Both the position numbers and the translations under genes were made by a program. The notes beneath the pieces were generated by a model. It made no database searches and was not told the DNA's origin. It saw only the letters and a program-made list of their open reading frames with translations. Shown in pieces: positions 14,666-26,240 of a stretch of 53,131 nucleotides of DNA (its first letter is position 1; every line of letters begins with the position of its first letter). This DNA is from an uncultured Bacteroidota bacterium (GTDB lineage Bacteria > Bacteroidota > Bacteroidia > Flavobacteriales_D > Crocinitomicaceae), in the NCBI GenBank assembly GCA_937899625.1, contig CALCCB010000053.1:1-53131 (forward strand), written 5' to 3'.

Positions 14666-15562
14666 TTATTTTACCTCAATATGATCCTTACACTTAAGTT
14701 TTCGTTCTCTGATGTCAAAATCGATCCTTCCAATATTAATCCCGGCATAACCTACTTGATTCACCAGTACGGTTTCTCCCTTCTTGTTTTTAACCTGCGT
14801 TGGTTCATTGAGAAACGTATGCGTATGGCCTCCAATGATCAAATGAATATGTTCACTTTGAGCGGCCAATTTGAGATCACTGATCTTTTCAGTTTCATAT
14901 GAATATCCCAAATGGGATAAACAGATGATCAGATCACATCCTTGATTTTTTAATGATAGCGCCTCTGAATTGGCACTTTCAACAGGATCAAGATATTTAG
15001 TGTCACCGTATTTGCTTGCAGGAACCAATCCTTCCAATTCAACCCCGATCCCTAGTATACCGATCTTCAAACCATCCTTTTCAATGATCACCGACCTTTT
15101 TATCTTACCATTTAGACTTGTTTCACTAAAATCATAATTAGCAGAGACAAACGGAAATTCTGCAAACTCAACCGCTTGCATAAATCCATCCAATCCTATG
15201 TCGAAATCGTGATTCCCAAGTGTAGCGACATCATATTTCATTTTTGTCATGAGCTTCATCTCAAGAACCCCTTTGTATACATTAAAATAAGGTGTTCCCT
15301 GAAAGATATCTCCAGCATCCAGTAGTAATACATTTTCTTCTTCAGACCTAATCTTTTCAATCAACGCATAACGCGTTGCGACTCCACCTCTATTGGGATA
15401 TTTACTATGGTTAGCTGGAAAAGGATCGATCTGTGAGTGGGTATCGTTGGTATGGAGGATCGTAATTGACGTAGATTTCTTTGCCAATAAAGGAACCGAA
15501 GGAGCGACCATGAGCCCTCCTGCTACAAGCGTATTCTTCTTGATGAAATCTCGTCTCTTCAT
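14666..15562 (-). CDS. 5'-nucleotidase catalytic half (metallophosphoesterase, Tat-like signal)
   Basis: 298 residues. It corresponds only to the N-terminal metallophosphoesterase domain of UshA-type enzymes (normally about 550 residues). Metal and catalytic motifs are complete: HTNDTH (D40, H42), LDAGD (D85), GNHD (N117, H118), SHLG (H217) and GGHTH (H246, H248). The N-terminus MKRRDFIKKNTLVAGG has the twin-arginine pattern RRxFIKK followed by a hydrophobic segment, suggesting Tat export as a folded metalloprotein. The expected reaction is removal of phosphate from nucleotides in the periplasm. The substrate-binding C-domain is encoded by the gene immediately upstream, whose stop codon overlaps this ATG (TAATG at 15560-15564). 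Confidence 0.9.
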   Translation of the reverse strand: MKRRDFIKKNTLVAGGLMVAPSVPLLAKKSTSITILHTNDTHSQIDPFPANHSKYPNRGGVATRYALIEKIRSEEENVLLLDAGDIFQGTPYFNVYKGVLEMKLMTKMKYDVATLGNHDFDIGLDGFMQAVEFAEFPFVSANYDFSETSLNGKIKRSVIIEKDGLKIGILGIGVELEGLVPASKYGDTKYLDPVESANSEALSLKNQGCDLIICLSHLGYSYETEKISDLKLAAQSEHIHLIIGGHTHTFLNEPTQVKNKKGETVLVNQVGYAGINIGRIDFDIRERKLKCKDHIEVK

Positions 15563-16272
15563 TAGAAATTCATTCGATTTTCGGTATTCACGATCAAGGT
15601 ATCCTGAGCAATTGCCGCATTAATAAATACATCTCTTAAAAACCTTCCAGTGAGTACTTTTTCTGTTGCGCTTTTAAAGAAGTTCATGTTGTCACCTCCA
15701 TTCATCAGATAATCAGAAGTGATTACCCAAAACTCTTCAACATCCGTCGCTTGAGAGGAGAAGACAAGTCCATTATCATCGATGATCGCATTTGATATCG
15801 GATCACCTCCTTTGCTATGATAATAAGCAACGATCTCAGCGATTGTTGATGATGGTAATTTTACCCAAACTACTTCGTTGTCAAATGGCATCAGCCTGTA
15901 AAAATCTCCAACTGTCAAATCTCCCTGATTCAATGAAGACCTTAATCCTCCCGTATTTAATATCGCAATTGCCGGAATAGAAAGACGCACATTCTTGGTT
16001 TCTTCCGATAACAATGCATCAGCTGCCCAGTTACTCAAGGTGCCTGAAGGTTTTCTGGAAACTGTAAGATCAACCTTCGAATAGGCTATAATCTCATCCA
16101 TCTCTCCCCTTAAGCTATCCCTGTAGATCGAGATCAAGGAGTCCAAAATCAGATCTTTCTGCTCCCCATCTACATGAACGACCTCATCAGTTGCAATTAT
16201 TTCAACATGCGAAGAGCAGGCCATTAAGCCTGCTCCTAACACAGAAAGTAATACTTTCTTTATCTTGTTCAT
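15562..16272 (-). CDS. 5'-nucleotidase C-terminal domain lipoprotein
   Basis: 236 residues. MNKIKKVLLSVLGAGLMAC is a Sec lipoprotein signal with Cys19. The rest is the 5'-nucleotidase C-terminal (substrate-binding) domain, with family landmarks AILNTGGLRSSLNQGDLTVGDFY and the DYLMNGGDNMNFF block near the end. It has no metal-binding motifs, so it should not be catalytic by itself. It probably pairs with the Tat-type catalytic half encoded next in the operon. Its ATG directly follows the TAA of the endonuclease gene (16273-16275) with no gap. Confidence 0.88.
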   Translation of the reverse strand: MNKIKKVLLSVLGAGLMACSSHVEIIATDEVVHVDGEQKDLILDSLISIYRDSLRGEMDEIIAYSKVDLTVSRKPSGTLSNWAADALLSEETKNVRLSIPAIAILNTGGLRSSLNQGDLTVGDFYRLMPFDNEVVWVKLPSSTIAEIVAYYHSKGGDPISNAIIDDNGLVFSSQATDVEEFWVITSDYLMNGGDNMNFFKSATEKVLTGRFLRDVFINAAIAQDTLIVNTENRMNF

Positions 16273-18543
16273 TTACTCAATGATCAATTTTTGTGAAGTG
16301 GATCCTTCTGGTGTAGATACATTTATGATGTATAATCCAGCGTTAAAATCAGATGATTCAAGGATCAACACATCCATTGATATATCCTTTACAGACTTAA
16401 CAACTGACCCTTTCATATCAACAATTTCGTAAGATTCAATTTTTGTTCCGTTCACCTGAACATAGACCTTATCATTTGAAGGAACAGGGAATATTACCAC
16501 ATTCGCATCAAGAAGCTCTTGAATTGAACTTGAAGCACAACCATCCGCATTGTATGAGTTGTCATCAACATTGATGTAACAAGCAAAATCTACAGAGTCA
16601 ATGAATGGGTTTCTATTTCCCTGTAGATCATAAATGTATTCGTGTCGTGCAATCTCATAATTATCAGGCAAATCCTGGAAATGCCAGTCTATCAATGTTT
16701 GGACAACCTGCTTATCAGAATTAACATTTCCAGTTAGTGGGAAGTCATATGCAACTGAAGTATACATTATTGATCTGGCTGCATTACCTTTTTGAGAATT
16801 AGTCGGTTCAAAAACCAATTGAGAGCCATTATAACCAACAGCACAGTCTAGAAACGTATACAGAGTCGAACCAGTAATGTTATCTAAAGGTAGATTACTT
16901 CTTGGCGTATTAGCCCCTTGCAAATTGGTTGGATAGAGATGGTGCTGGTCCGTATATTCAGGTTGCTCAGGACTGTCCGCAGGAAAGCTAGGCATCCAAG
17001 AATGCGAAAAGGTATGCTCTCTGGAATATCCGGTTTGAGTCCAATCGAAAGGATCATCAAATACTTTTCTTTCACCTGAATATACACATGTAACATAAGA
17101 CTGACCATTTGTTGTGTCTTTGATCTCAAACTCGTTCATCATTGTTTGCTTATACATGAAGTAGGTGATCTGAGTATGTGGGTTGATTAATGCTTCGAGA
17201 TCAGTTACCAAAGTAGGAGACGAAGAAGAAATCCCATTGTAATAAGCTCCAATATTCGAACCTGTGCTCGACACATTCCCGGTAGCTGGGGAAGTGGTAA
17301 GGTAATTTTCGTATCCACCCTGTCCATTGAACGCATAAACTGCGAAATAATAGTTTTGGTTCGCAATAATACCTCGCGGCGTAAACCCTAAACCAGAACC
17401 AACATAAGCTACTCTTGCATCTCCAACGACATCTCCTCTCATATAGGTGTTACCGTTGGCAGGAACTCCAGTAATAGCGCTACCATTTTTCCATAAAACT
17501 ATGTACTTTGATGCACCAGTTCCAGCGTTATACGTACCAGACAGAGTGTATGCCTTTACATTTGAAAAACTCAATCCAGTTGGATTTGTAGTAGGTTCAG
17601 TTGCAAGGTTGTTGGTTCCTACCCCTTCGAAGTTGATAATGTAAGGATTTTCATCTGCATCGTCATTTCCAATTGAAATTGTTGCAAATCTGGAACCCGT
17701 GCTTGCAGGTAAAAATGTAATTGTGTAGGAATTACTAGCACCACCAGCAACTGTTCCTGCAGTGATATTAGATGAAAAATCAGCAGAATTAATACCTGAA
17801 AAACTATGTCCTGAAATTGTTAAATTATTTACACCTAAGTTTTCAATAGAAACAATCAGAGTTGCAGCCGGACCGACAAAGTAATTCGAACCTGTCAATA
17901 CATCCACTCCATTGATCAACACATTTATTTCCTTATCCGGTGCCACATAAGGAACGATATCATTAAGATCCCTTGGCACAACCTGATAGTTCGTGTTGAA
18001 CTGTCCCATTTCTCCAGTGATCGTTATTGGACCTGTTGGAATTGGGGTACCATCAATGTTAGTCGATCCATTGATCCTCACATCCAGTGTATTGGCTCCA
18101 TCCGTAACCTGTACCGTACTGTTTCCAGTAGCAAAGTTGCCTGTTTGAACGAAAGTAACATTCTGGAATTGAACGAGTTTTGACTCATGTACTTCGCCAG
18201 CCGATGTAATACCCAATTGTAAAGGCGTTGGTGTGATCACTGCAGGACCATGATTCGTGTAAGAGTTAATTGGTGAAATTTCCAATAACCCAGAAAAATC
18301 AAGAAGAACACCTGTTACAGTAATCGAATCATATCGCTGAACAGAATTCAAGGTTGTTCCATAGGCGGCGATTGCTGCTGTTCCATCCTGTAAGTATCGA
18401 ATTGGACCTAATTCCGAACCATTCGTTACTACTCCACTTACAGTAACTGTTTGACCGACACCCAATGCACGAGCATCTGCAATCGTTTGAGCGGAAGCAA
18501 TTCCTGTTAAACAGATGGCAATAAATAATAAAACTTTTTTCAT
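16273..18543 (-). CDS. T9SS-secreted endonuclease I with N-terminal OB folds
   Basis: 756 residues. In order: a signal peptide (1-18, ending ASAQ); two OB-fold-like, possibly nucleic-acid-binding units (about 20-195, with VGQTVTVSGVVT and YLQDGTAAI); a choice-of-anchor-D/Hydin-like Ig domain (about 200-310); an FN3-like module (about 315-425); a ββα-Me endonuclease I domain (about 430-665) with REHTFSHSWMP (near 504) and DQHHLYPTN...RSNLP (near 531); and a T9SS sorting domain (about 684-756, ending QKLIIE). It should cut extracellular DNA (perhaps RNA) at the cell surface or after release. It sits 13 bases after the TonB receptor start-to-stop junction, in a five-gene operon. Confidence 0.88.
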   Translation of the reverse strand: MKKVLLFIAICLTGIASAQTIADARALGVGQTVTVSGVVTNGSELGPIRYLQDGTAAIAAYGTTLNSVQRYDSITVTGVLLDFSGLLEISPINSYTNHGPAVITPTPLQLGITSAGEVHESKLVQFQNVTFVQTGNFATGNSTVQVTDGANTLDVRINGSTNIDGTPIPTGPITITGEMGQFNTNYQVVPRDLNDIVPYVAPDKEINVLINGVDVLTGSNYFVGPAATLIVSIENLGVNNLTISGHSFSGINSADFSSNITAGTVAGGASNSYTITFLPASTGSRFATISIGNDDADENPYIINFEGVGTNNLATEPTTNPTGLSFSNVKAYTLSGTYNAGTGASKYIVLWKNGSAITGVPANGNTYMRGDVVGDARVAYVGSGLGFTPRGIIANQNYYFAVYAFNGQGGYENYLTTSPATGNVSSTGSNIGAYYNGISSSSPTLVTDLEALINPHTQITYFMYKQTMMNEFEIKDTTNGQSYVTCVYSGERKVFDDPFDWTQTGYSREHTFSHSWMPSFPADSPEQPEYTDQHHLYPTNLQGANTPRSNLPLDNITGSTLYTFLDCAVGYNGSQLVFEPTNSQKGNAARSIMYTSVAYDFPLTGNVNSDKQVVQTLIDWHFQDLPDNYEIARHEYIYDLQGNRNPFIDSVDFACYINVDDNSYNADGCASSSIQELLDANVVIFPVPSNDKVYVQVNGTKIESYEIVDMKGSVVKSVKDISMDVLILESSDFNAGLYIINVSTPEGSTSQKLIIE

Positions 18544-18556
18544 TTTTTATAGTGTA

Positions 18557-21301
18557 TTAAAATTCAAAACCTAACGACAAATTAAAGGTCAAACCTTGAC
18601 CAACAAATACTCCAGCTGATTGAGCGCCAAAATCAGAACCATTCTGATTGTTTCTCGCGTCTGAAATGTACCATGAGTTCAATGCATTGAATACATTGGC
18701 TTTAAAATGTAAAGAACTTTTCTCAAATCTCACTCGGTATCCTGCGTGAACACTCATCAATCCATAAGAAGGAATCTTCCATGACTCTCTGCCTCCATTT
18801 CCCGAAGAAGGAGTTAATGAGAATGGATCGAAATTACTGAAGTAACGATCAAAATAAGTGTATTTAATTTTTACATATCCCGACTTCAGGAAAGAGTATC
18901 TAACACTTGCGGCATAGGTTGACTGAGCTGCATCTCCAACATGAACTCCTTTCGCATCAAATTCGAAAACTGTCCCTAATACATCGATCTGCTCAGATGA
19001 CTGCCAAGTCCAGTCGCCAATTGAGATCATCCCTTCAAATGTCAATTTCTTTGATACGTTGTAAGCTGCATCGAATTCAATTCCCATGTGCAATGCATCC
19101 ATTCCGTTAACGTTTGCTCTGACAAATTCAAGTGGATCCAATGGGTTAGGAATGCTCACGCCAAAAGGAAATGGCTTATTCTGCCAGAAGGTAAAGTAAC
19201 CGTTTGAATTCAAGCTAAACTTCTTTGATCGGTATCCATAACCAACTTCGAAGGCATAGATCTTTTCATTCAGGATCTCCTCAAACACTGAATTCGTGTT
19301 ATTATCAATGACATTTGAGAATTGCGGAGTTCTAGATAAGTAACCCAAATTCATGAACACATTCGAACGATCACTCACATTTAGGTTCGCCCCGGCCTTA
19401 ACAGTATATCCGGCCTTCCATACTGTTTCAGTCTGACTGTAGATCAACTCAGGAGAATCAGTTGTATATGTTTTACCATTGTATTCAACTGTATCTGAAT
19501 ACCCGACATAAATCACCGTATCTCCATCATGCAGCTCTTTCTTTTTAAAGTAGTCAACACCCAGATAATTATTGACAACACTAGACGCGTTAACGAAGGC
19601 TGTCCAACGTCCGTGAGAATATTCAGCCTGTCCAAATCCTCCCATCCATTGCATAATGGCGTCTCTGTGATTTTGATATGGCAGATCTTCACGAGCGATC
19701 TTGTCACCGACTTGCATCATAGTAGTCGGTGCATTCTGATTCGCTTCATTGATAAAGTAATCACCTCCCAGTAAGTCTGTCAATTCAGTATAGTGTGTTC
19801 CTTTATAATATCTATAATCCAAACCTCCAGAAACATTCCATTTGCTATTGACCTTAAGATCAAATTGAGAGATACCCCCAACCCAGAAATGGTTATTCAT
19901 TGAAGCAGATGCAACAACCGAGGACTTAAGCATTGTAGAATCATAGGCAAAATCAGTGGTGGGATAGGTATTTCCGAATAAAACTTTCCATTTATTGTTG
20001 TATACCATTTGATCCCAATCTACTTGACCGGTAGAATCAAACAAAATCGCACTTGATGAATTAAAAATTCGCTCTCCTCCACCTCTACCGATGGAAACAT
20101 AAGCCATGTTTGACCAAGAAAGTTTATCATTCACTTTCCAGAAATCTTTCAATGTAATCTGTGGTTTATGGTAAAAATTTCTTCGCTCATTTTTAATTGT
20201 TCTAGTACCATCATCACTCGTCAAATATCCCCAGTGCTGATTGAAACGAGTTCCATGGTCAATATTTGAAGAGTCTACTGATGTAACACCCAGATCATAT
20301 GCTCTATCTGCATTCCAATAGGCAATCGGTTGATTGAATGATCGTTGACCATGTTGCTGAGGAGCACCAAATCCACTTAAACTCGTCACATGGTTTTTCC
20401 ATTTCTTTTGAACCTTCAAATAATAGAATGCACCTTGCGAGTTCAGTCCATCAACCCAACCATTACCTTGTTTGTATGACCCTGAAAACAAAACACCCCA
20501 TCCATTCTTAAGCGTTCCAGATTTGTAGGATAAAGAAGTTCGTAAAAAGGTTCCGCTCCCATACTCCTGCTCAGCTTTGATCTCTCTTTTACCAGCTGTA
20601 TTATCTGTGATGATGTTCATCGTTCCGCCGACGGATGGCATTGCAAGCTTAGTGGCGCCCAATCCTCTTTGTACCTGGATTTGTTGAGTTATATCGTCCA
20701 AACCAAACCAGTTCGACCAGTACACCCAACCGTTTTCCATGTCGTTCACCGGAACCCCATCGATCATTACACCAACATTACGCTGATCAAATCCACGGAT
20801 CGTAATTCGAGCGTCTCCATCACCTCCACCTTGCTGTGTGGCATGTACACCCGGCTTTGAATTGAGGATCATTGGAAGATCCTGAGATCCTAATTCTTCT
20901 GTTAATTCTTTTTTCCCAAGGGTAGACACCGCAACAGGTGTTTTTCTATCCTGAGCAATGTTCCCGATCACTTTGACCTCTTCAAGCTCCTGGCTTCCTC
21001 CAAGAAGAACATCTTGAGAAACTTCCGGCTGATCAATTGAAATTTGAATACGAACGGTGTCAAATGAGATCATCGCTACAGTCAGGGTATAATTACCATA
21101 AGCCAGATCACTAATTCGATATAGACCGTCAAAATCTGAACGAGCCTGACCTTTGATCTCGTTGTTTTCATACATGATCACCCTGGCACCTACTACAGGT
21201 TGCTTAGTTGCATTATCTACTATCTTACCCGATAAATTACCAGATTGAGAAAAGATCGAGCAGGTGATCGTCAGAAAGAAAAGTGAAAGAATGGTCTTCA
21301 T
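18557..21301 (-). CDS. TonB-dependent outer-membrane receptor with carboxypeptidase-regulatory domain
   Basis: 914 residues: a signal peptide (1-18), a CarboxypepD_reg-like beta-sandwich (about 20-105, GKIVDNATKQPVVGARV), a plug domain (about 115-240, with ITIRGFDQRNVGVMIDGVPVNDMENG and GGTMNIIT) and a 22-strand-type barrel ending in an aromatic residue (LSLGFEF). It imports a ligand across the outer membrane using TonB energy. No SusD-type lipoprotein is adjacent, so it is not a classical glycan SusCD pair. Between a secreted nuclease and a lamin-tail protein, the likely cargo is nucleic-acid fragments, nucleosides or phosphate; this is inference from context. Confidence 0.88.
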   Translation of the reverse strand: MKTILSLFFLTITCSIFSQSGNLSGKIVDNATKQPVVGARVIMYENNEIKGQARSDFDGLYRISDLAYGNYTLTVAMISFDTVRIQISIDQPEVSQDVLLGGSQELEEVKVIGNIAQDRKTPVAVSTLGKKELTEELGSQDLPMILNSKPGVHATQQGGGDGDARITIRGFDQRNVGVMIDGVPVNDMENGWVYWSNWFGLDDITQQIQVQRGLGATKLAMPSVGGTMNIITDNTAGKREIKAEQEYGSGTFLRTSLSYKSGTLKNGWGVLFSGSYKQGNGWVDGLNSQGAFYYLKVQKKWKNHVTSLSGFGAPQQHGQRSFNQPIAYWNADRAYDLGVTSVDSSNIDHGTRFNQHWGYLTSDDGTRTIKNERRNFYHKPQITLKDFWKVNDKLSWSNMAYVSIGRGGGERIFNSSSAILFDSTGQVDWDQMVYNNKWKVLFGNTYPTTDFAYDSTMLKSSVVASASMNNHFWVGGISQFDLKVNSKWNVSGGLDYRYYKGTHYTELTDLLGGDYFINEANQNAPTTMMQVGDKIAREDLPYQNHRDAIMQWMGGFGQAEYSHGRWTAFVNASSVVNNYLGVDYFKKKELHDGDTVIYVGYSDTVEYNGKTYTTDSPELIYSQTETVWKAGYTVKAGANLNVSDRSNVFMNLGYLSRTPQFSNVIDNNTNSVFEEILNEKIYAFEVGYGYRSKKFSLNSNGYFTFWQNKPFPFGVSIPNPLDPLEFVRANVNGMDALHMGIEFDAAYNVSKKLTFEGMISIGDWTWQSSEQIDVLGTVFEFDAKGVHVGDAAQSTYAASVRYSFLKSGYVKIKYTYFDRYFSNFDPFSLTPSSGNGGRESWKIPSYGLMSVHAGYRVRFEKSSLHFKANVFNALNSWYISDARNNQNGSDFGAQSAGVFVGQGLTFNLSLGFEF

Positions 21302-21363
21302 TATCCTGTTTTCATGAAAAGAGGTCGATTGCTCGACCTCTTTGGATTATTTACTGATAAATA

Positions 21364-22338
21364 TTATTTTACCACTACTCTTTTAGAAACTTGTTCTCCT
21401 TGAGCATTTGTCAATCGAACAAAGTACACTCCTTTGGAAGCGCTAAGATCAACAGACATAACAGTTTTTCCATTTGTAGAGGAAGAATATACTGACTGTC
21501 CAAGAGCATTTGTGATCTCAATATTGTCAAATGATGCAATGTTCTTTACGTAAACAACTCCATTCGTTGGGTTAGGATATACTCGAACCGACTCTAACAT
21601 CTCTTCATCCACAGAAGCTGGCTCACAATCGCAAGTATGAACTCCAAGAGATTCCCAATTACCAAATAACTGGCCTCCTATATCAACTACCGCTGGAATT
21701 GAATCATACTCTAAAAGAGGATCAAAAAACGATAACAACACGTTCGTTTCACCTTTTTTGATTGTAGCCTTTCTGATCATTGAATGGTCTGCTGTCACGA
21801 TATCTCCAGGTCCGTTGTAAGGAAAAGCAGATGTCCAAGCTGTTCCAGGATCTTGTCCTATCTTACCGAAGATATCAACTACCACAGCATTCGCAATGTC
21901 AGTCGCACTTCCCTTTGCCAAAACAACGGCATCATTTCCGTTCCAGTAGAATGCATATGAATCTGCATAAACTGGACAATAAAATTCATCCGCCTTAGCC
22001 TGAAGATCATCCCAAACAGGTGCTTCCTGTCCAGTTCCCATCGGATCTCTTTTATCAAGAACCCCAACATGAGTGCTGTAAGGAGCAATGGTTCCAGTCA
22101 ACTGGATCGCAATAGAAGCCGTAGCACCAGAAGTATTAGAAGTTGAACCGTTGTTGTATCTCGCTACGAAATACTGACTCAAATCAATTGAATTGGCTGT
22201 AGGATTGTAAATCTCTAACGCTTTGTTGTTAGACCATCCTTCAACGTACTCTGAAATAAATAATTCAGAACAGTCGGCTGTCTGACCGAAAGTAAACCCG
22301 GTCAATAATGTAGATAGGAAAAGTAAAACTTTTTTCAT
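21364..22338 (-). CDS. Lamin-tail-domain protein with T9SS sorting signal
   Basis: 324 residues: a signal peptide (1-18), a lamin-tail domain (about 22-235) starting CSELFISEYVEGWSNNKALE, and a T9SS C-terminal domain (about 250-324, VRVYPNPTNG through SKRVVVK). This lamin-tail subtype is the one found at the N-terminus of ExeM-like extracellular nucleases, where it is thought to help surface association or substrate contact. It has no catalytic domain of its own. It is first in the nucleic-acid operon, 62 bases ahead of the TonB receptor gene. Confidence 0.82.
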   Translation of the reverse strand: MKKVLLFLSTLLTGFTFGQTADCSELFISEYVEGWSNNKALEIYNPTANSIDLSQYFVARYNNGSTSNTSGATASIAIQLTGTIAPYSTHVGVLDKRDPMGTGQEAPVWDDLQAKADEFYCPVYADSYAFYWNGNDAVVLAKGSATDIANAVVVDIFGKIGQDPGTAWTSAFPYNGPGDIVTADHSMIRKATIKKGETNVLLSFFDPLLEYDSIPAVVDIGGQLFGNWESLGVHTCDCEPASVDEEMLESVRVYPNPTNGVVYVKNIASFDNIEITNALGQSVYSSSTNGKTVMSVDLSASKGVYFVRLTNAQGEQVSKRVVVK

Positions 22339-22677
22339 TGGATTAATTTAGATTATAGATTGATCGAAAAATTACATTGGATACCGAACGAAAAGGATGC
22401 AAAGTTGGGATATAGCTGTGCACGTATACTATTGATAAATTCAACGCACTGCTGTATCTCTTGAAAGACATTTACTTGCTCATTGCTCTCTCATTCTTAT
22501 TCTTTCCCGGTTTCAGCTCAATTGAATAGCCTCAAGGACAACAAGAAAGAATTTTGCACAAATGTAGGACATTCTACTCAACCATTCTTTATGAAATTGT
22601 TAACATTGGGAAAAGGTTTTTCACGATTCCTAAGTGTTCAATGCAATCATTTCTATTTTTACAATAAAAAGTATACT
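22339..22677. other. Divergent intergenic region, nucleic-acid operon / S9 peptidase
   Basis: 339 bases without a supported gene. An in-frame extension of the peptidase gene to 22483 is open, but it would place 65 non-homologous residues before a good signal peptide. On the minus strand a TAATTTTT (22367-22374) is a 7-of-8 match to the -7 consensus 28 bases before the lamin-tail gene. On the plus strand a weak TATTTTTA lies shortly before 22678. I see no convincing operator or hairpin. Confidence 0.4.
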
Positions 22678-24855
22678 ATGCAAAAGGCTCTATTTTTCTT
22701 CATTCTGGGGATGATCATTCACCCTTTAACTGCCCAAAAGGAGTTAACGGTTGAATCCATCTGGAAAAAATATGAATTCTACTCTCAAGGAGTGAGTGGA
22801 TTTAATGGGATGAACGACGGGATCCACTTCACGAAACTTACCGAAGACAAAGGAAAACAGAGCATCACCAAGCATAAGATCACGGATTATGCGGGAAGTG
22901 GAGATGTGCTGGTGAAGTCGGAAGAACTGATCTATAACGGAAAAAGCATTGATGTTTCTGATTATCAATTTAATGAAGACGAATCAAAAATCTTATTGAT
23001 CACAGAAGAGACAAGCATCTACAGAAGAAGCTACAATGCCGTTCACTACCTGATGGACATGAAAACCAAAAAGATAGAACCATTAGATACTGAGCATAGT
23101 CCACAAACATTAGCAGAGTATTCGCCGGATGGGATGAAGGTTTCATACATCTATAAAAATGATCTTTTTGTGAAGGACCTGGCTTCTGGTAAAGTCAAGC
23201 AGCTTACAGAAGATGGAAAGAAGAACAAAGTTATCAATGGTACTACAGATTGGGTGTATGAAGAGGAATTCGCACTTACGAAAGCTTATGACTGGTCTCC
23301 GGACAGTAAAACGATTGCCTTTTTAAGGTTCAATGAGAAGAAGGTGAAAGAATTCACGATGACTTACTATAAGAATGAACTTTATCCGGAAGAATATACG
23401 TTCAAATATCCAAAAGCAGGCGAAGAAAATTCTAAGGTTACGCTTCATACTGTATCCGTTTCAAAAGGTAAGGTTTCGAATATCAATCTTGGTGAATACG
23501 AGTACATTCCGCGTTTGACCTATTCGCCAATTGACAATCAACTGATCGTGCAAACCCTCAACAGACATCAAAATCACGTAAAATATCACATCATTAATAC
23601 ATCAGCTAAAAAACCAGTTTCAAAAGTATTCCATGAAGAAATTGATAAAGCGTACGTGGAAATTGATGATAATCTGTTGATCCTGAATGATGGAAAATCA
23701 TTGATCCGAACAAGTGAAAAGGACGGTTACAATCATATTTATAAGGTTGGGTTTGATGGAAGTACTACACAAATCACAAAAGGAAGCTGGGATGTGATCG
23801 AGTTGCACGGAATTGATACAAAGAATGAAAATATCTATTTCAGTTCAGCCGAATTCGGAACGATATCAAAAACCATTTCAAAGATCAGAGTAGACGGAAG
23901 CAACAAAACACTGATCTCATCAGATCATGGCTATAACGATGCTGAATTTACGAATGGAATGAATTATTTCGTAAAAACATATTCGGACGCCAACAGACCT
24001 CCGGTTTCAACCCTATGCGACAACGCAGGAAAAGAACTTGCGGTCCTTCAAGATAACTCAGCATTGAATGAAAAACTATCATCATATACTTTAGGAAAAA
24101 AGGAATTCTTTACCTTGGAGCTGGAGGGCAGATCATTGAACGCCTGGATGTTGAAACCAGCTAATTTCGATCCAGCTAAAAAATACCCAGTTTACATGAT
24201 CGTATATGGCGGTCCAGGGCACAATGAAGTGATCGATAGCTGGGGCGGAATGAACTTGATGTATCATCAGTTGTTGGCCCAAAAAGGATACATCGTTGTT
24301 TCAGTTGATCCAAGAGGAACGATGTACAGAGGTGCTGAATTCAAGAAATCAACCTACTTACAATTAGGAAAGCTGGAAACTGAAGATTTCATTGATGCTG
24401 CGAAATACCTTCAAAAACAATCGTATATCGATCCGGCGAGAATCGGTATTCAGGGTTGGAGTTATGGTGGGTTTATGTCATCTCTTTGTATTACGAAAGG
24501 AGCAGACGTATTTAAAGCAGCGATCGCTGTAGCTCCAGTAACCAACTGGAAATTCTATGACAACATTTATACGGAAAGGTTTATGCGAACTCCGGAAGAA
24601 AACCCGAATGGATATGAGGAAAATTCTCCTGTGAATTTCGCAAAGCTTTTAAAAGGAAAATACTTGTTGATTCATGGATCTGGAGATGATAACGTTCATT
24701 ATCAAAACACCATGGAAATGATCAATGCAATGGTTGCTGCAGACAAGGATTTTGAACATTTCATCTACCCTAACAAAAACCACGGGATTTATGGTGGAAA
24801 TACTCGAAATCATTTATTCAGAATGATGCTGAACTTTACTATGGAAAATCTTTAA
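22678..24855 (+). CDS. S9 family prolyl oligopeptidase, dipeptidyl peptidase IV type
   Basis: 725 residues from MQKALFFFILGMIIHPLTAQ, which is a signal peptide. Residues about 40-470 form the DPP4 beta-propeller (contains DWVYEEEF, the region that binds the free N-terminus). The C-terminal alpha/beta hydrolase has the nucleophile in GWSYGG (S595), Asp in GDDNVH (near 670) and His in NKNHGI (H702). It removes X-Pro or X-Ala dipeptides in the periplasm. Length and motif spacing match bacterial DPP4. The start at 22483 is rejected for lack of homology and because it hides the signal peptide. Confidence 0.92.
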   Translation: MQKALFFFILGMIIHPLTAQKELTVESIWKKYEFYSQGVSGFNGMNDGIHFTKLTEDKGKQSITKHKITDYAGSGDVLVKSEELIYNGKSIDVSDYQFNEDESKILLITEETSIYRRSYNAVHYLMDMKTKKIEPLDTEHSPQTLAEYSPDGMKVSYIYKNDLFVKDLASGKVKQLTEDGKKNKVINGTTDWVYEEEFALTKAYDWSPDSKTIAFLRFNEKKVKEFTMTYYKNELYPEEYTFKYPKAGEENSKVTLHTVSVSKGKVSNINLGEYEYIPRLTYSPIDNQLIVQTLNRHQNHVKYHIINTSAKKPVSKVFHEEIDKAYVEIDDNLLILNDGKSLIRTSEKDGYNHIYKVGFDGSTTQITKGSWDVIELHGIDTKNENIYFSSAEFGTISKTISKIRVDGSNKTLISSDHGYNDAEFTNGMNYFVKTYSDANRPPVSTLCDNAGKELAVLQDNSALNEKLSSYTLGKKEFFTLELEGRSLNAWMLKPANFDPAKKYPVYMIVYGGPGHNEVIDSWGGMNLMYHQLLAQKGYIVVSVDPRGTMYRGAEFKKSTYLQLGKLETEDFIDAAKYLQKQSYIDPARIGIQGWSYGGFMSSLCITKGADVFKAAIAVAPVTNWKFYDNIYTERFMRTPEENPNGYEENSPVNFAKLLKGKYLLIHGSGDDNVHYQNTMEMINAMVAADKDFEHFIYPNKNHGIYGGNTRNHLFRMMLNFTMENL

Positions 24856-24956
24856 TGACCTTTCAAAATATTTTTCCCGTATCTCTTGATATAATATATC
24901 CTAAACATTAACTTAGGCGACCGATAACGATTGAATAACACAATTTAAATTAAGCC

Positions 24957-26240
24957 ATGAGCGAAACTGTAAAACTTGTCATTGGAGACAATTCTTATGA
25001 ATTTCCTGTGATCGAAGGAACTGAAAATGAAAAAGCGATCGACATTGGTAAGCTAAGAGACCTTACCGGTTACATTACTATGGATCCTGGATACAAAAAT
25101 ACAGGAGCATGTTCAAGTAACATTACATACCTTGATGGTGAGAATGGAATTCTACATTATCGCGGTTATTCAATCGAATCATTAGCTGAGCAATCAACAT
25201 TCCTTGAAGTATCCTATTTATTGATCTTCGGAGAATTGCCTTCAAAGGCGCAATTGACCAAATTTGAAAACGACATTCGCAAATACACCCTTGTGAATGA
25301 AGAAATGAAAAATATCCTTGACGGATTCCCAAAAACGGCACATCCGATGGGAGTTCTTTCTTCGCTTACAAGTGCATTAACAGCATTTAACCCTAAGGCT
25401 GTTAACGTGAATAACGAAAAGGAGATGTATGATGCGATCTGTAAGACAATGGCCAAGTTCATTGTGATCGCAACATGGACATACAGAAAGAGTATGGGTT
25501 ATCCTTTGAATTATTACGATAACACAAAAGGATACGTCGATAATTTCCTTCGTTTGATGTTTGAGTTACCTACTGGTCCTTATAACATTGACCCGAAGAT
25601 CGTTTCTGCTTTGGATAAGTTATTCATTCTTCACGCGGACCACGAGCAGAACTGTTCTACTTCAACGGTAAGAATGGTTGGTTCTTCTCATGCAGGACTG
25701 TTTGCTTCAATCTCTTCAGGTGTTTCTGCACTTTGGGGACCTCTTCACGGTGGAGCCAACCAGGCGGTACTTGAAATGTTAGAGCAGATCAAAAATGATG
25801 GTGGCGACGTTGATAAGTACGTTCTTAAAGCAAAAGATAAGGATGATCCTTTCAGATTGATGGGATTCGGACATAGAGTATACAAGAACTTTGACCCAAG
25901 AGCGAGAATCATTAAGAAAGCTGCTGACGACGTTCTAGGTACATTGGGAGTTGATGATCCGGTTCTTGAGATCGCGAAGAAATTGGAGAAAGTAGCATTG
26001 GAGGACGAGTACTTCAAGGCTAGAAATCTTTATCCGAATGTTGACTTCTACTCAGGAATCATTTACCGTGCATTAGGTATTCCAGTGGATATGTTCACTG
26101 TAATGTTTGCAATTGGACGTCTACCAGGATGGATTGCTCAGTGGAAAGAAATGAGGGCTAACAAAGAACCGATCGGTCGTCCAAGACAGATCTATAACGG
26201 AGCTACTCCAAGAGACTACGTTAGCTTAGATAAAAGATAA
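24957..26240 (+). CDS. gltA: Citrate synthase
   Basis: 427 residues, type II bacterial citrate synthase, condensing acetyl-CoA and oxaloacetate at entry to the TCA cycle. Conserved blocks seen: FILHADHEQNCSTSTVRMVGS, WGPLHGGANQAVL (catalytic His), GFGHRVYKNFDPRA (catalytic His and Arg) and DFYSGI (catalytic Asp). The N-terminal beta-rich domain (about 1-45) typical of the hexameric Gram-negative form is present. A strong hairpin terminator lies immediately after the stop codon. Confidence 0.96.
   Translation: MSETVKLVIGDNSYEFPVIEGTENEKAIDIGKLRDLTGYITMDPGYKNTGACSSNITYLDGENGILHYRGYSIESLAEQSTFLEVSYLLIFGELPSKAQLTKFENDIRKYTLVNEEMKNILDGFPKTAHPMGVLSSLTSALTAFNPKAVNVNNEKEMYDAICKTMAKFIVIATWTYRKSMGYPLNYYDNTKGYVDNFLRLMFELPTGPYNIDPKIVSALDKLFILHADHEQNCSTSTVRMVGSSHAGLFASISSGVSALWGPLHGGANQAVLEMLEQIKNDGGDVDKYVLKAKDKDDPFRLMGFGHRVYKNFDPRARIIKKAADDVLGTLGVDDPVLEIAKKLEKVALEDEYFKARNLYPNVDFYSGIIYRALGIPVDMFTVMFAIGRLPGWIAQWKEMRANKEPIGRPRQIYNGATPRDYVSLDKR

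What the first reader, a model, noticed from the sequence alone, without database searches (positions are those of the whole stretch)
14666..22338. Five-gene block predicted to break down and import extracellular nucleic acid
Seen: lamin-tail T9SS protein, TonB receptor, T9SS endonuclease I with OB folds, 5'-nucleotidase C-domain lipoprotein and 5'-nucleotidase catalytic half lie on one strand with gaps of 62 and 13 bases, no gap, and a 1-base TAATG overlap. Known: endonuclease I, UshA-type 5'-nucleotidase and ExeM-type lamin-tail domains all act on nucleic acids or nucleotides. Inferred: DNA is cut at the surface, products pass through the TonB receptor, and the split nucleotidase frees phosphate and nucleosides in the periplasm. 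No SusD is present, so the receptor may define a nucleotide- or nucleic-acid-uptake class distinct from glycan SusCD systems.
Basis: partly seen in the sequence, partly recalled or inferred. Interest (0 to 1): 0.75.

Follow-up and report, generated by a model that had tools for sequence, protein, structure and literature searches.

The report
Likely DNA-scavenging outer-membrane uptake operon
A five-gene block in a Bacteroidota bacterium looks like a kit for cutting up, importing and dephosphorylating DNA from outside the cell, and its core appears interchangeable with a gene cassette of the kind that a related bacterium needs for taking up DNA.

Summary
Observation confirmed: five minus-strand ORFs (LTD surface protein, TonB-dependent receptor, T9SS endonuclease I, nucleotidase C-domain lipoprotein, nucleotidase catalytic half), gaps 62, 13, 0 and -1. 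It is not a chance neighbourhood: among 80 named relatives of the receptor, LTD lies directly upstream in 73 of 76 evaluable loci and a secreted nuclease directly downstream in 63 of 67. The nuclease domain changes between endonuclease I and PLD at least 8 times on the receptor tree. The nucleotidase pair is linked in only 24 of 53.

New: the LTD cassette excludes a second cassette, a different receptor with a DUF5689/choice-anchor-J protein. Of 150 genomes of the order, 101 have one, 32 the other, none both. In three genera the two replace each other between shared flanking genes (one of these sites, by one flank, is the window's locus), and nucleotidase or PLD genes stay in two of them. The second cassette has the architecture reported for a Riemerella pair essential for natural transformation.

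Best reading: an outer-membrane DNA capture and import module for nutrition, possibly also transformation. Transport is not shown, and the Riemerella match is by architecture, not sequence.

The parts
21364..22338 (-). Surface protein with lamin tail domain (LTD) and T9SS type A sorting tail, 324 aa; proposed surface capture partner
   Evidence: Pfam LTD 1.8e-12 and Por_Secre_tail 1.5e-12; hit to the N-terminal part of the ExeM model far below its cut-off; LTD and tail in 48 of 48 rows scanned, window included, of 96 available
18557..21301 (-). TonB-dependent outer-membrane receptor with CarbopepD_reg domain, 914 aa; proposed importer
   Evidence: Plug 5.9e-15 and CarbopepD_reg_2 3.5e-12; no PDB sequence match at E 0.01; model pLDDT 86.8, nearest PqqU, Fiu, YncD, FhuA; lies in one clade of 89 rows that holds all 87 LTD-linked rows of the tree
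16273..18543 (-). T9SS-type nuclease, 756 aa: N-terminal DUF5689/OB-like region, Ig-like domains, endonuclease I domain, T9SS tail
   Evidence: Endonuclease_1 1.1e-23, DUF5689 3.6e-13, tail 1.6e-9; aligned to solved endonuclease I nucleases over residues 531-649; E509, H510 and N545 invariant in 38 rows, window included, their roles recalled; model pLDDT 85.9
15562..16272 (-). 5'-nucleotidase C-terminal (substrate) domain as a separate lipoprotein, 236 aa
   Evidence: 5_nucleotid_C 6.9e-16; 3ivd nucleotidase 5.9e-10; lipobox-like pattern in 31 of 40 homologues of 220 aa or more
14666..15562 (-). 5'-nucleotidase catalytic (metallophosphatase) half as a separate protein with Tat-type signal, 298 aa
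   Evidence: Metallophos 6.6e-19; 2z1a 5'-nucleotidase 1.9e-42, also CD73 and UshA; motifs at 39, 82, 116, 216 and 244; RR signal pattern in 34 of 37 homologues
22483..24855 (+). Flank: DPP IV-type peptidase, marks the locus (not part of the system)
   Evidence: homologues (58-62%) flank both cassette types in genus g184
24957..26240 (+). Flank: citrate synthase, marks the locus (not part of the system)
   Evidence: homologues (66-67%) next to the DPP IV gene in G476 (LTD cassette) and G505 (second cassette), not found beside it in G435

Best explanation
The block is an outer-membrane system for capturing, cutting and importing extracellular nucleic acid, most likely DNA. The LTD protein and the DUF5689/OB-endonuclease I protein are exported by T9SS and held at the surface, where they bind and cut DNA. 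The TonB-dependent receptor moves DNA or oligonucleotides into the periplasm. The Tat-exported catalytic half and the lipoprotein C-domain together act as a 5'-nucleotidase that frees phosphate and nucleosides. The receptor cassette is functionally interchangeable with a receptor-DUF5689 cassette of the kind needed for DNA uptake in Riemerella transformation. Shown by sequence: gene content, conserved linkage, catalytic-domain switching, mutual exclusion, exchange in place. Inferred: surface location, substrate, transport, order of steps, and whether imported DNA also feeds transformation.
For: Conserved three-gene core: LTD 73 of 76 and nuclease 63 of 67 in named loci, against 0 of 19 and 0 of 20 in control receptors. 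Catalytic slot: Endonuclease_1 in 39 and PLDc_2 in 20 of 59 scanned, of 76 available; 20 proteins carry HKD motifs, two each; at least 8 EndoI/PLD changes among 81 scored rows; the joint profile matches solved endonuclease I nucleases and mitochondrial cardiolipin hydrolases (the latter include the piRNA nuclease Zucchini, recalled). Nucleotidase linkage changes 4 times (32 with, 33 without, 24 not evaluable). Mutual exclusion with the second cassette in 150 genomes of the order: 101 vs 32, both 0, neither 17, Fisher 1.4e-20; inside family f1, 47 and 9 of 60, both 0, chance 4.8e-8. In the window's own genus 20 of 25 genomes have the LTD-type receptor, and 3 of the 5 without it were looked at and carry the second receptor (L029-L031, 45-50% identity to L205); none of the 6 LTD-type genomes of that genus searched has it at E 1e-30. 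Specificity control: sister receptors of the LTD clade coexist with the second receptor in 23 of its 44 genomes. Exchange in place in genera g13, g207 and g184; the PLD nuclease is retained in g207 and CTD/CAT in g184; the window's right-hand flanking genes mark the g184 site. CTD/CAT lies beside the second cassette in 8 of 20 fetched loci. The second cassette's partner has DUF5689, DUF5017 and choice_anch_J, as reported for RA0C_RS04920, whose markerless deletion, like that of RA0C_RS04915, put transformation below detection (PMC8459023, sections 18, 19 and 21 read). ComEC, DprA, HHH_3 proteins and a CNT nucleoside transporter are in the genome.
Against: No transport, binding or expression data exist. 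Identity of the second cassette with the Riemerella pair rests on domain architecture and on an NCBIfam subfamily named from a Riemerella locus tag, hit well below its cut-off; no Riemerella sequence was compared, and that tag appears in a paper's passages as an LPS-associated gene (PMC4976936, passages). Mutual exclusion is partly phylogenetic: of the genera in the 150-genome sample only 3 hold both types. Only 34 of the 102 hits were newly inspected (33 with LTD, L235 without); one hit (G548) proved to be a sister receptor and was dropped, and G541 was not resolved. For g184 the shared flank is on one side only. The receptor model's nearest solved structures are small-ligand receptors; its pore was not examined. 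The nucleotidase pair is missing from most of the more distant named loci. What LTD binds is unknown.
Confidence: 0.7

Rival explanations
1. Transformation module: the cassette is mainly the outer-membrane DNA-uptake device of natural transformation in this clade, replacing the Riemerella-type pair, and nutrition is secondary. (Overlaps with the best explanation, so the odds do not add up to one.)
For: Mutual exclusion and in-place exchange with the Riemerella-like cassette; ComEC, DprA and HHH_3 proteins present while the only DUF5689 in the genome is the one in the block and the second receptor is absent at E 1e-30.
Against: A surface nuclease and a nucleotidase pair in one operon point to breakdown of DNA to nucleosides; CTD/CAT is also linked to the second cassette. 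ComEC, DprA and HHH_3 families are also found in 10, 11 and 11 of 14 control genomes, so their presence is weak evidence.
Confidence: 0.2
2. Secreted nucleases for biofilm or matrix remodelling or defence, with a receptor that imports something else, e.g. iron or a cofactor; linkage reflects shared surface expression only.
For: Foldseek neighbours of the receptor model are siderophore, haem, PQQ, zinc and copper receptors; sister receptors often have unrelated neighbours.
Against: Receptor, LTD and nuclease stay together in records titled Flavobacteriales, Bacteroidales and Saprospiraceae while the nuclease domain changes; the receptor is exchanged together with its surface partners; nucleotidase linkage changes several times.
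Confidence: 0.1
3. Uptake of free nucleotides, RNA or nucleotide cofactors (NAD, nucleotide sugars) rather than DNA.
For: The catalytic half is also close to NAD nucleotidase and UshA; sister receptors sit directly before a nucleotide pyrophosphatase-family gene in 9 of 59; endonuclease I enzymes can cut RNA (recalled).
Against: A secreted endonuclease is not needed for free nucleotides; the exchangeable cassette resembles one tied to DNA uptake.
Confidence: 0.2

Closest known systems
Riemerella anatipestifer natural-transformation pair RA0C_RS04915/RA0C_RS04920 (PMC8459023; abstract, passages, sections 18, 19, 21 read)
   Same: Outer-membrane protein with carboxypeptidase-regulatory domain plus a DUF5689 protein in one predicted operon; a cassette of that architecture occupies the corresponding chromosomal site in relatives of the window's organism
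   Different: Receptor of another clade than the cassettes of that architecture; here DUF5689 is fused to a T9SS nuclease, an LTD protein is added, there is no choice-of-anchor J domain, and a nucleotidase pair follows
ExeM/NucH extracellular nucleases (LTD, OB fold and EEP nuclease in one chain; architecture recalled)
   Same: LTD and OB-like parts combined with a secreted nuclease; the LTD protein hits the ExeM model over residues 24-167
   Different: Parts split over two proteins, endonuclease I or PLD instead of EEP, and a dedicated receptor
UshA/CD73-type 5'-nucleotidase
   Same: Both halves found, with the metallophosphatase motifs in the catalytic half
   Different: Split into two genes in the order C-domain then catalytic half, with lipoprotein and Tat-type signals
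SusCD glycan-uptake loci
   Same: Receptor plus surface partner plus degrading enzymes in one operon
   Different: No SusC/RagA model and no SusD hit; T9SS-type surface partner instead of a SusD lipoprotein

Membership tests
SusCD uptake locus | SusC/RagA-family receptor | tested here: not met
   No SusC/RagA model among the NCBIfam hits at E 0.001; no SusC in the 50 Foldseek rows shown of 979 matches
SusCD uptake locus | SusD-family lipoprotein beside the receptor | tested here: not met
   No SusD domain in the five genes or five flanking genes scanned
Receptor-DUF5689 cassette (Riemerella-like) | Receptor of the same clade | tested here: not met
   The three second-type receptors in the tree (L201, L205, L208) branch outside the 150-row clade that holds the window receptor
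Receptor-DUF5689 cassette (Riemerella-like) | Adjacent DUF5689 protein with DUF5017/choice-of-anchor J | tested here: not met
   A DUF5689 part is present but fused to a T9SS nuclease; no choice-anchor J or DUF5017 hit
Receptor-DUF5689 cassette (Riemerella-like) | Required for DNA uptake | not testable with these tools
   A genetic result exists for Riemerella only (PMC8459023)
ExeM/NucH extracellular nuclease | LTD, OB fold and EEP nuclease in one chain | tested here: not met
   LTD in one protein, endonuclease I in another; definition recalled
5'-nucleotidase (UshA/CD73) | Metallophosphatase domain with its motifs | tested here: met
5'-nucleotidase (UshA/CD73) | C-terminal substrate domain | tested here: met
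   Present, but as a separate lipoprotein
T9SS cargo | C-terminal sorting tail | tested here: met
   Por_Secre_tail in the LTD and nuclease proteins
Endonuclease I | Endonuclease_1 domain with conserved His and Asn positions | tested here: met
   Domain 444-650; E509, H510 and N545 invariant in 38 rows; N545 lies in the stretch aligned to solved nucleases, E509/H510 do not, and their catalytic roles are recalled

The most novel reading that the evidence does not exclude
TonB-dependent receptors of at least two clades are the missing outer-membrane DNA channels of Bacteroidota. They come as exchangeable cassettes (receptor plus T9SS-type or lipoprotein OB-fold capture proteins) that occupy one chromosomal site, and they serve both DNA nutrition and natural transformation in bacteria without a DNA-uptake pilus.
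Probability: 0.4. Interest if true: 0.92.

Novelty: new variant of a known kind. Interest (0 to 1): 0.78.

Why it matters
How DNA crosses the outer membrane in Bacteroidota is open; the Riemerella study offered a receptor-like protein only as part of a speculative model (PMC8459023, Discussion). Here comparative genomics supplies an independent receptor family, tied to nucleases and nucleotidases and exchanged in place with a Riemerella-like cassette. [quoted passage not shown]

Tried and rejected
Treating the nucleotidase pair as a core part was rejected: it is linked in 24 of 53 named loci. Counting all receptor hits of the phylum sample as the same system was rejected: of 99 genomes with a hit only G000, G080 and G032 score over 1000 bits, and 0 of 59 sister loci examined have LTD. 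Sister receptors show other neighbours: nucleotide pyrophosphatase next in 9 of 59, endonuclease I within 6 kb in 4 of 58, the housekeeping gene pgi upstream in 14 of 59. The four controls with DUF5689 downstream (L201, L205, L208, L209) turned out to be the second cassette, so they are not neutral controls for DUF5689. Foldseek of the whole nuclease protein showed mainly Ig- and fibronectin-like matches in the 50 rows listed and did not confirm the OB folds; the OB reading rests on the strand pattern of the model and the DUF5689 match. phmmer of the receptor against PDB sequences gave nothing. Rows dropped from the tree: six loci that I took for near-duplicates (L032, L035, L054, L059, L087, L093) and L007; as L035/L093 and L007/L059 are each one sequence seen twice, those two receptors are not represented at all. 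Also dropped: cut-off or short receptors and 12 of 20 controls. The tree is FastTree, has 37 open forks of 155, and carries a warning that long branches meet at the outgroup.

Literature: searches listed 3, 1, 2, 0, 3 and 3 papers, and none of the titles or abstract openings shown describes an LTD-receptor-nuclease operon; two of those papers were looked into by passages. Searches concerned DUF5689 and Riemerella (1, 37 with 20 listed, 12 and 7 papers). The library is open-access only.
Full report
Observation. The five ORFs are present as described. Pfam and NCBIfam give LTD plus T9SS tail; TonB plug plus CarbopepD_reg; endonuclease I with a partial DUF5689 match, Ig-like parts and a T9SS tail; 5'-nucleotidase C-domain; and metallophosphatase. 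The catalytic half aligns with the 5'-nucleotidase 2z1a over residues 1-285 and has the NDTHS, DAGD, GNHD, SHLGY and GGHTH motifs; the C-domain aligns with 3ivd. The catalytic half starts with a Tat-type RR signal and the C-domain with a lipobox; in homologues these patterns are found in 34 of 37 and 31 of 40. The genome search gave no other 5_nucleotid_C match.

Conserved core. I collected relatives of the receptor from 40 genomes, the window's own included, and 80 named loci, the best of 576 relatives. With profiles built from the window genes, LTD lies within 300 bp upstream in 71 of 74 named loci with receptor score over 1000 and in 2 of 2 with cut-off receptors, and EndoI or PLD starts within 300 bp downstream in 63 of 67. 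In the unnamed related genomes the figures are 21 of 23 plus 1 of 1 for LTD and 14 + 4 of 19 for EndoI or PLD. The exceptions: L080, L099 and L136 are overlaps from start-codon calling, L134 has a longer gap, L094 has LTD and tail in separate ORFs, L119 has the PLD protein upstream of LTD; L113 lacks LTD and a nuclease domain; L048 and L053 lack LTD and fall outside the LTD clade of the tree. In 20 control receptors from the window's genus and order (L202 from the window's own genome), LTD is next in 0 of 19, EndoI in 0 of 20 and PLD in 0 of 20. Gaps have medians of 40 (LTD-receptor, n=99), 17 (receptor-nuclease, n=86), -1 (nuclease-CTD, n=42) and -1 (CTD-CAT, n=38). The nucleotidase pair is within 6 kb in 24 of 53 named loci.

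Swapped nuclease. Of 59 slot proteins scanned (of 76 available), 39 carry Endonuclease_1 and 20 PLDc_2; 20 of the 59 carry HKD motifs, two each. Their joint profile matches solved endonuclease I nucleases and mitochondrial cardiolipin hydrolases (the latter include Zucchini, recalled). On a 158-row receptor tree one clade of 89 rows (local support 100, FastTree) holds all 87 LTD-linked rows plus L113 and L074 (L074 has no upstream sequence); within it EndoI and PLD change at least 8 times among 81 scored rows and nucleotidase linkage 4 times among 65. A receptor and capture protein that keep their place while the cutting domain changes argue that the bond cut, a phosphodiester of nucleic acid, is the shared target. 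PLD enzymes can also be phospholipases (recalled), so this is not proof.

Sister receptors. In a phylum sample of 395 genomes, 99 have a receptor hit at 1e-100, but only three are of the LTD type by score. Of 59 sister loci examined, a nucleotide pyrophosphatase-family gene is next in 9, endonuclease I lies within 6 kb in 4 of 58, and many have unrelated neighbours.

A second, exchangeable cassette. A literature search for DUF5689 found one paper: in Riemerella anatipestifer, markerless deletion of RA0C_RS04915 (predicted outer membrane, carboxypeptidase-regulatory domain) or RA0C_RS04920 (DUF5689, DUF5017, choice-of-anchor J) put transformation below detection; the authors propose, as a speculative model, that DNA binds 04920 and may pass through 04915 (PMC8459023; abstract, passages, sections 18, 19, 21). 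A companion paper reports that mutation of two tonB genes inhibits transformation, one of them explained by iron deficiency (PMC8383284, abstract only). Four of my control loci carried a receptor-DUF5689 pair. In L285 the partner has DUF5689, DUF5017 and choice_anch_J together, as reported for RA0C_RS04920. I did not compare Riemerella sequences.

Mutual exclusion. In 150 genomes of the window's order (completeness at least 90), the LTD-type receptor profile hits 102 and the second receptor 32. I dropped G548, whose locus lacks LTD (L252), leaving 101; G541 is unresolved. No genome has both and 17 have neither (Fisher one-sided 1.4e-20). The test ignores kinship; within family f1 alone (47 and 9 of 60) the chance of no overlap is 4.8e-8, and five families and three genera of the sample hold both types in different genomes. 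Neighbourhoods were newly inspected for 34 LTD-type hits (33 with LTD; L235 without) and 20 of 32 second-type hits (20 with DUF5689 next, 0 with LTD). The window's own genus shows the same: 20 of 25 genomes have the LTD-type receptor; of the five without it, three were looked at and carry the second receptor (L029, L030, L031; 45-50% identity to the L205 receptor), two were not; and none of six LTD-type genomes of that genus searched has the second receptor at E 1e-30. As a control, sister receptors coexist with the second receptor in 23 of its 44 genomes in the phylum sample, more than expected (odds ratio 4.2, p 2e-5).

Exchange in place. In genus g13, G037 has LTD-receptor-EndoI and G454 has receptor-DUF5689-partner between the same flanks: nine genes on one side at 87-97% identity and six on the other at 85-94%. 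In g207, G455 has LTD-receptor-PLD and G445 has receptor-DUF5689-partner-PLD, the PLD nuclease retained at 54%, with related genes on both sides, though on one side unmatched genes lie between. In g184, G476 has LTD-receptor-EndoI-CTD-CAT, and G435 and G505 have receptor-DUF5689-partner-CTD-CAT; a DPP IV gene on one side is shared by all three and a citrate synthase gene by G476 and G505, while the other flank is not shared. These two genes are homologues of the window's own right flank at 22483-26240 (58-67% identity), and the window's left neighbour, lpd, has an 84% match on the other side of the block in G476, so by one flank this exchange lies at the window's locus. CTD/CAT lies beside the second cassette in 8 of 20 loci, in two of them directly downstream on the same strand, and two EEP-family genes, one with a T9SS tail, stand next to it in L278. 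Exchange of one cassette for the other at one site, leaving shared enzymes in place, is what replacement of one device by another of the same function would leave behind.

Receptor and downstream steps. The receptor model (pLDDT 86.8) is nearest to PqqU, Fiu, YncD and FhuA, so the fold alone does not speak for DNA. The genome carries ComEC, DprA, HHH_3 proteins and one CNT nucleoside transporter, so both fates, recombination and nucleoside use, are possible. ComEC, DprA and HHH_3 also occur in 10, 11 and 11 of 14 control genomes and CNT in 4, so the first three are weak evidence.

Verdict. Nucleic-acid capture and import is the best-supported reading (0.7). Shown: gene content, linkage, domain switching, exclusion, exchange. 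Inferred: surface location, substrate, import, product release. DNA use is known for other Bacteroidota: Lutibacter incorporated DNA-derived carbon, and Bacteroidota commonly carry extracellular nucleases and periplasmic nucleotidases (PMC8289736, passages); the string TonB does not occur in that paper's text. Searches of the open-access library listed no description of this operon.

Noticed in passing
L149, L164, L167, L169, L172, L174, L177, L191, L192: Sister receptors of the LTD clade sit directly upstream of a type I phosphodiesterase/nucleotide pyrophosphatase-family gene (9 of 59; Pfam-checked in L149 and L174 only), a possible third phosphodiester-linked receptor group.
   Followed up: partly
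L134: LTD-receptor locus followed by three endonuclease I proteins in a row; L118 also has two nuclease proteins.
   Followed up: no
L294: A second-type receptor preceded by a 638-aa protein that matches both the LTD profile and the DUF5689 protein, perhaps a mixed form of the two cassettes.
   Followed up: no
L278 12776-15109: Two endonuclease/exonuclease/phosphatase-family genes, one with a T9SS tail, lie divergently beside the second cassette; a gene of the first kind also lies beside the LTD cassette in L034.
   Followed up: partly
L285 6011-8218: A DUF5689-PLD nuclease, otherwise seen in the LTD cassette, stands downstream of a second-type cassette.
   Followed up: yes
window 14666-16272: The split 5'-nucleotidase has the C-domain gene before the catalytic gene, the reverse of the domain order in UshA (recalled); the pair also occurs away from the LTD cassette (L195, L257, L258, L260-L263).
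   Followed up: partly
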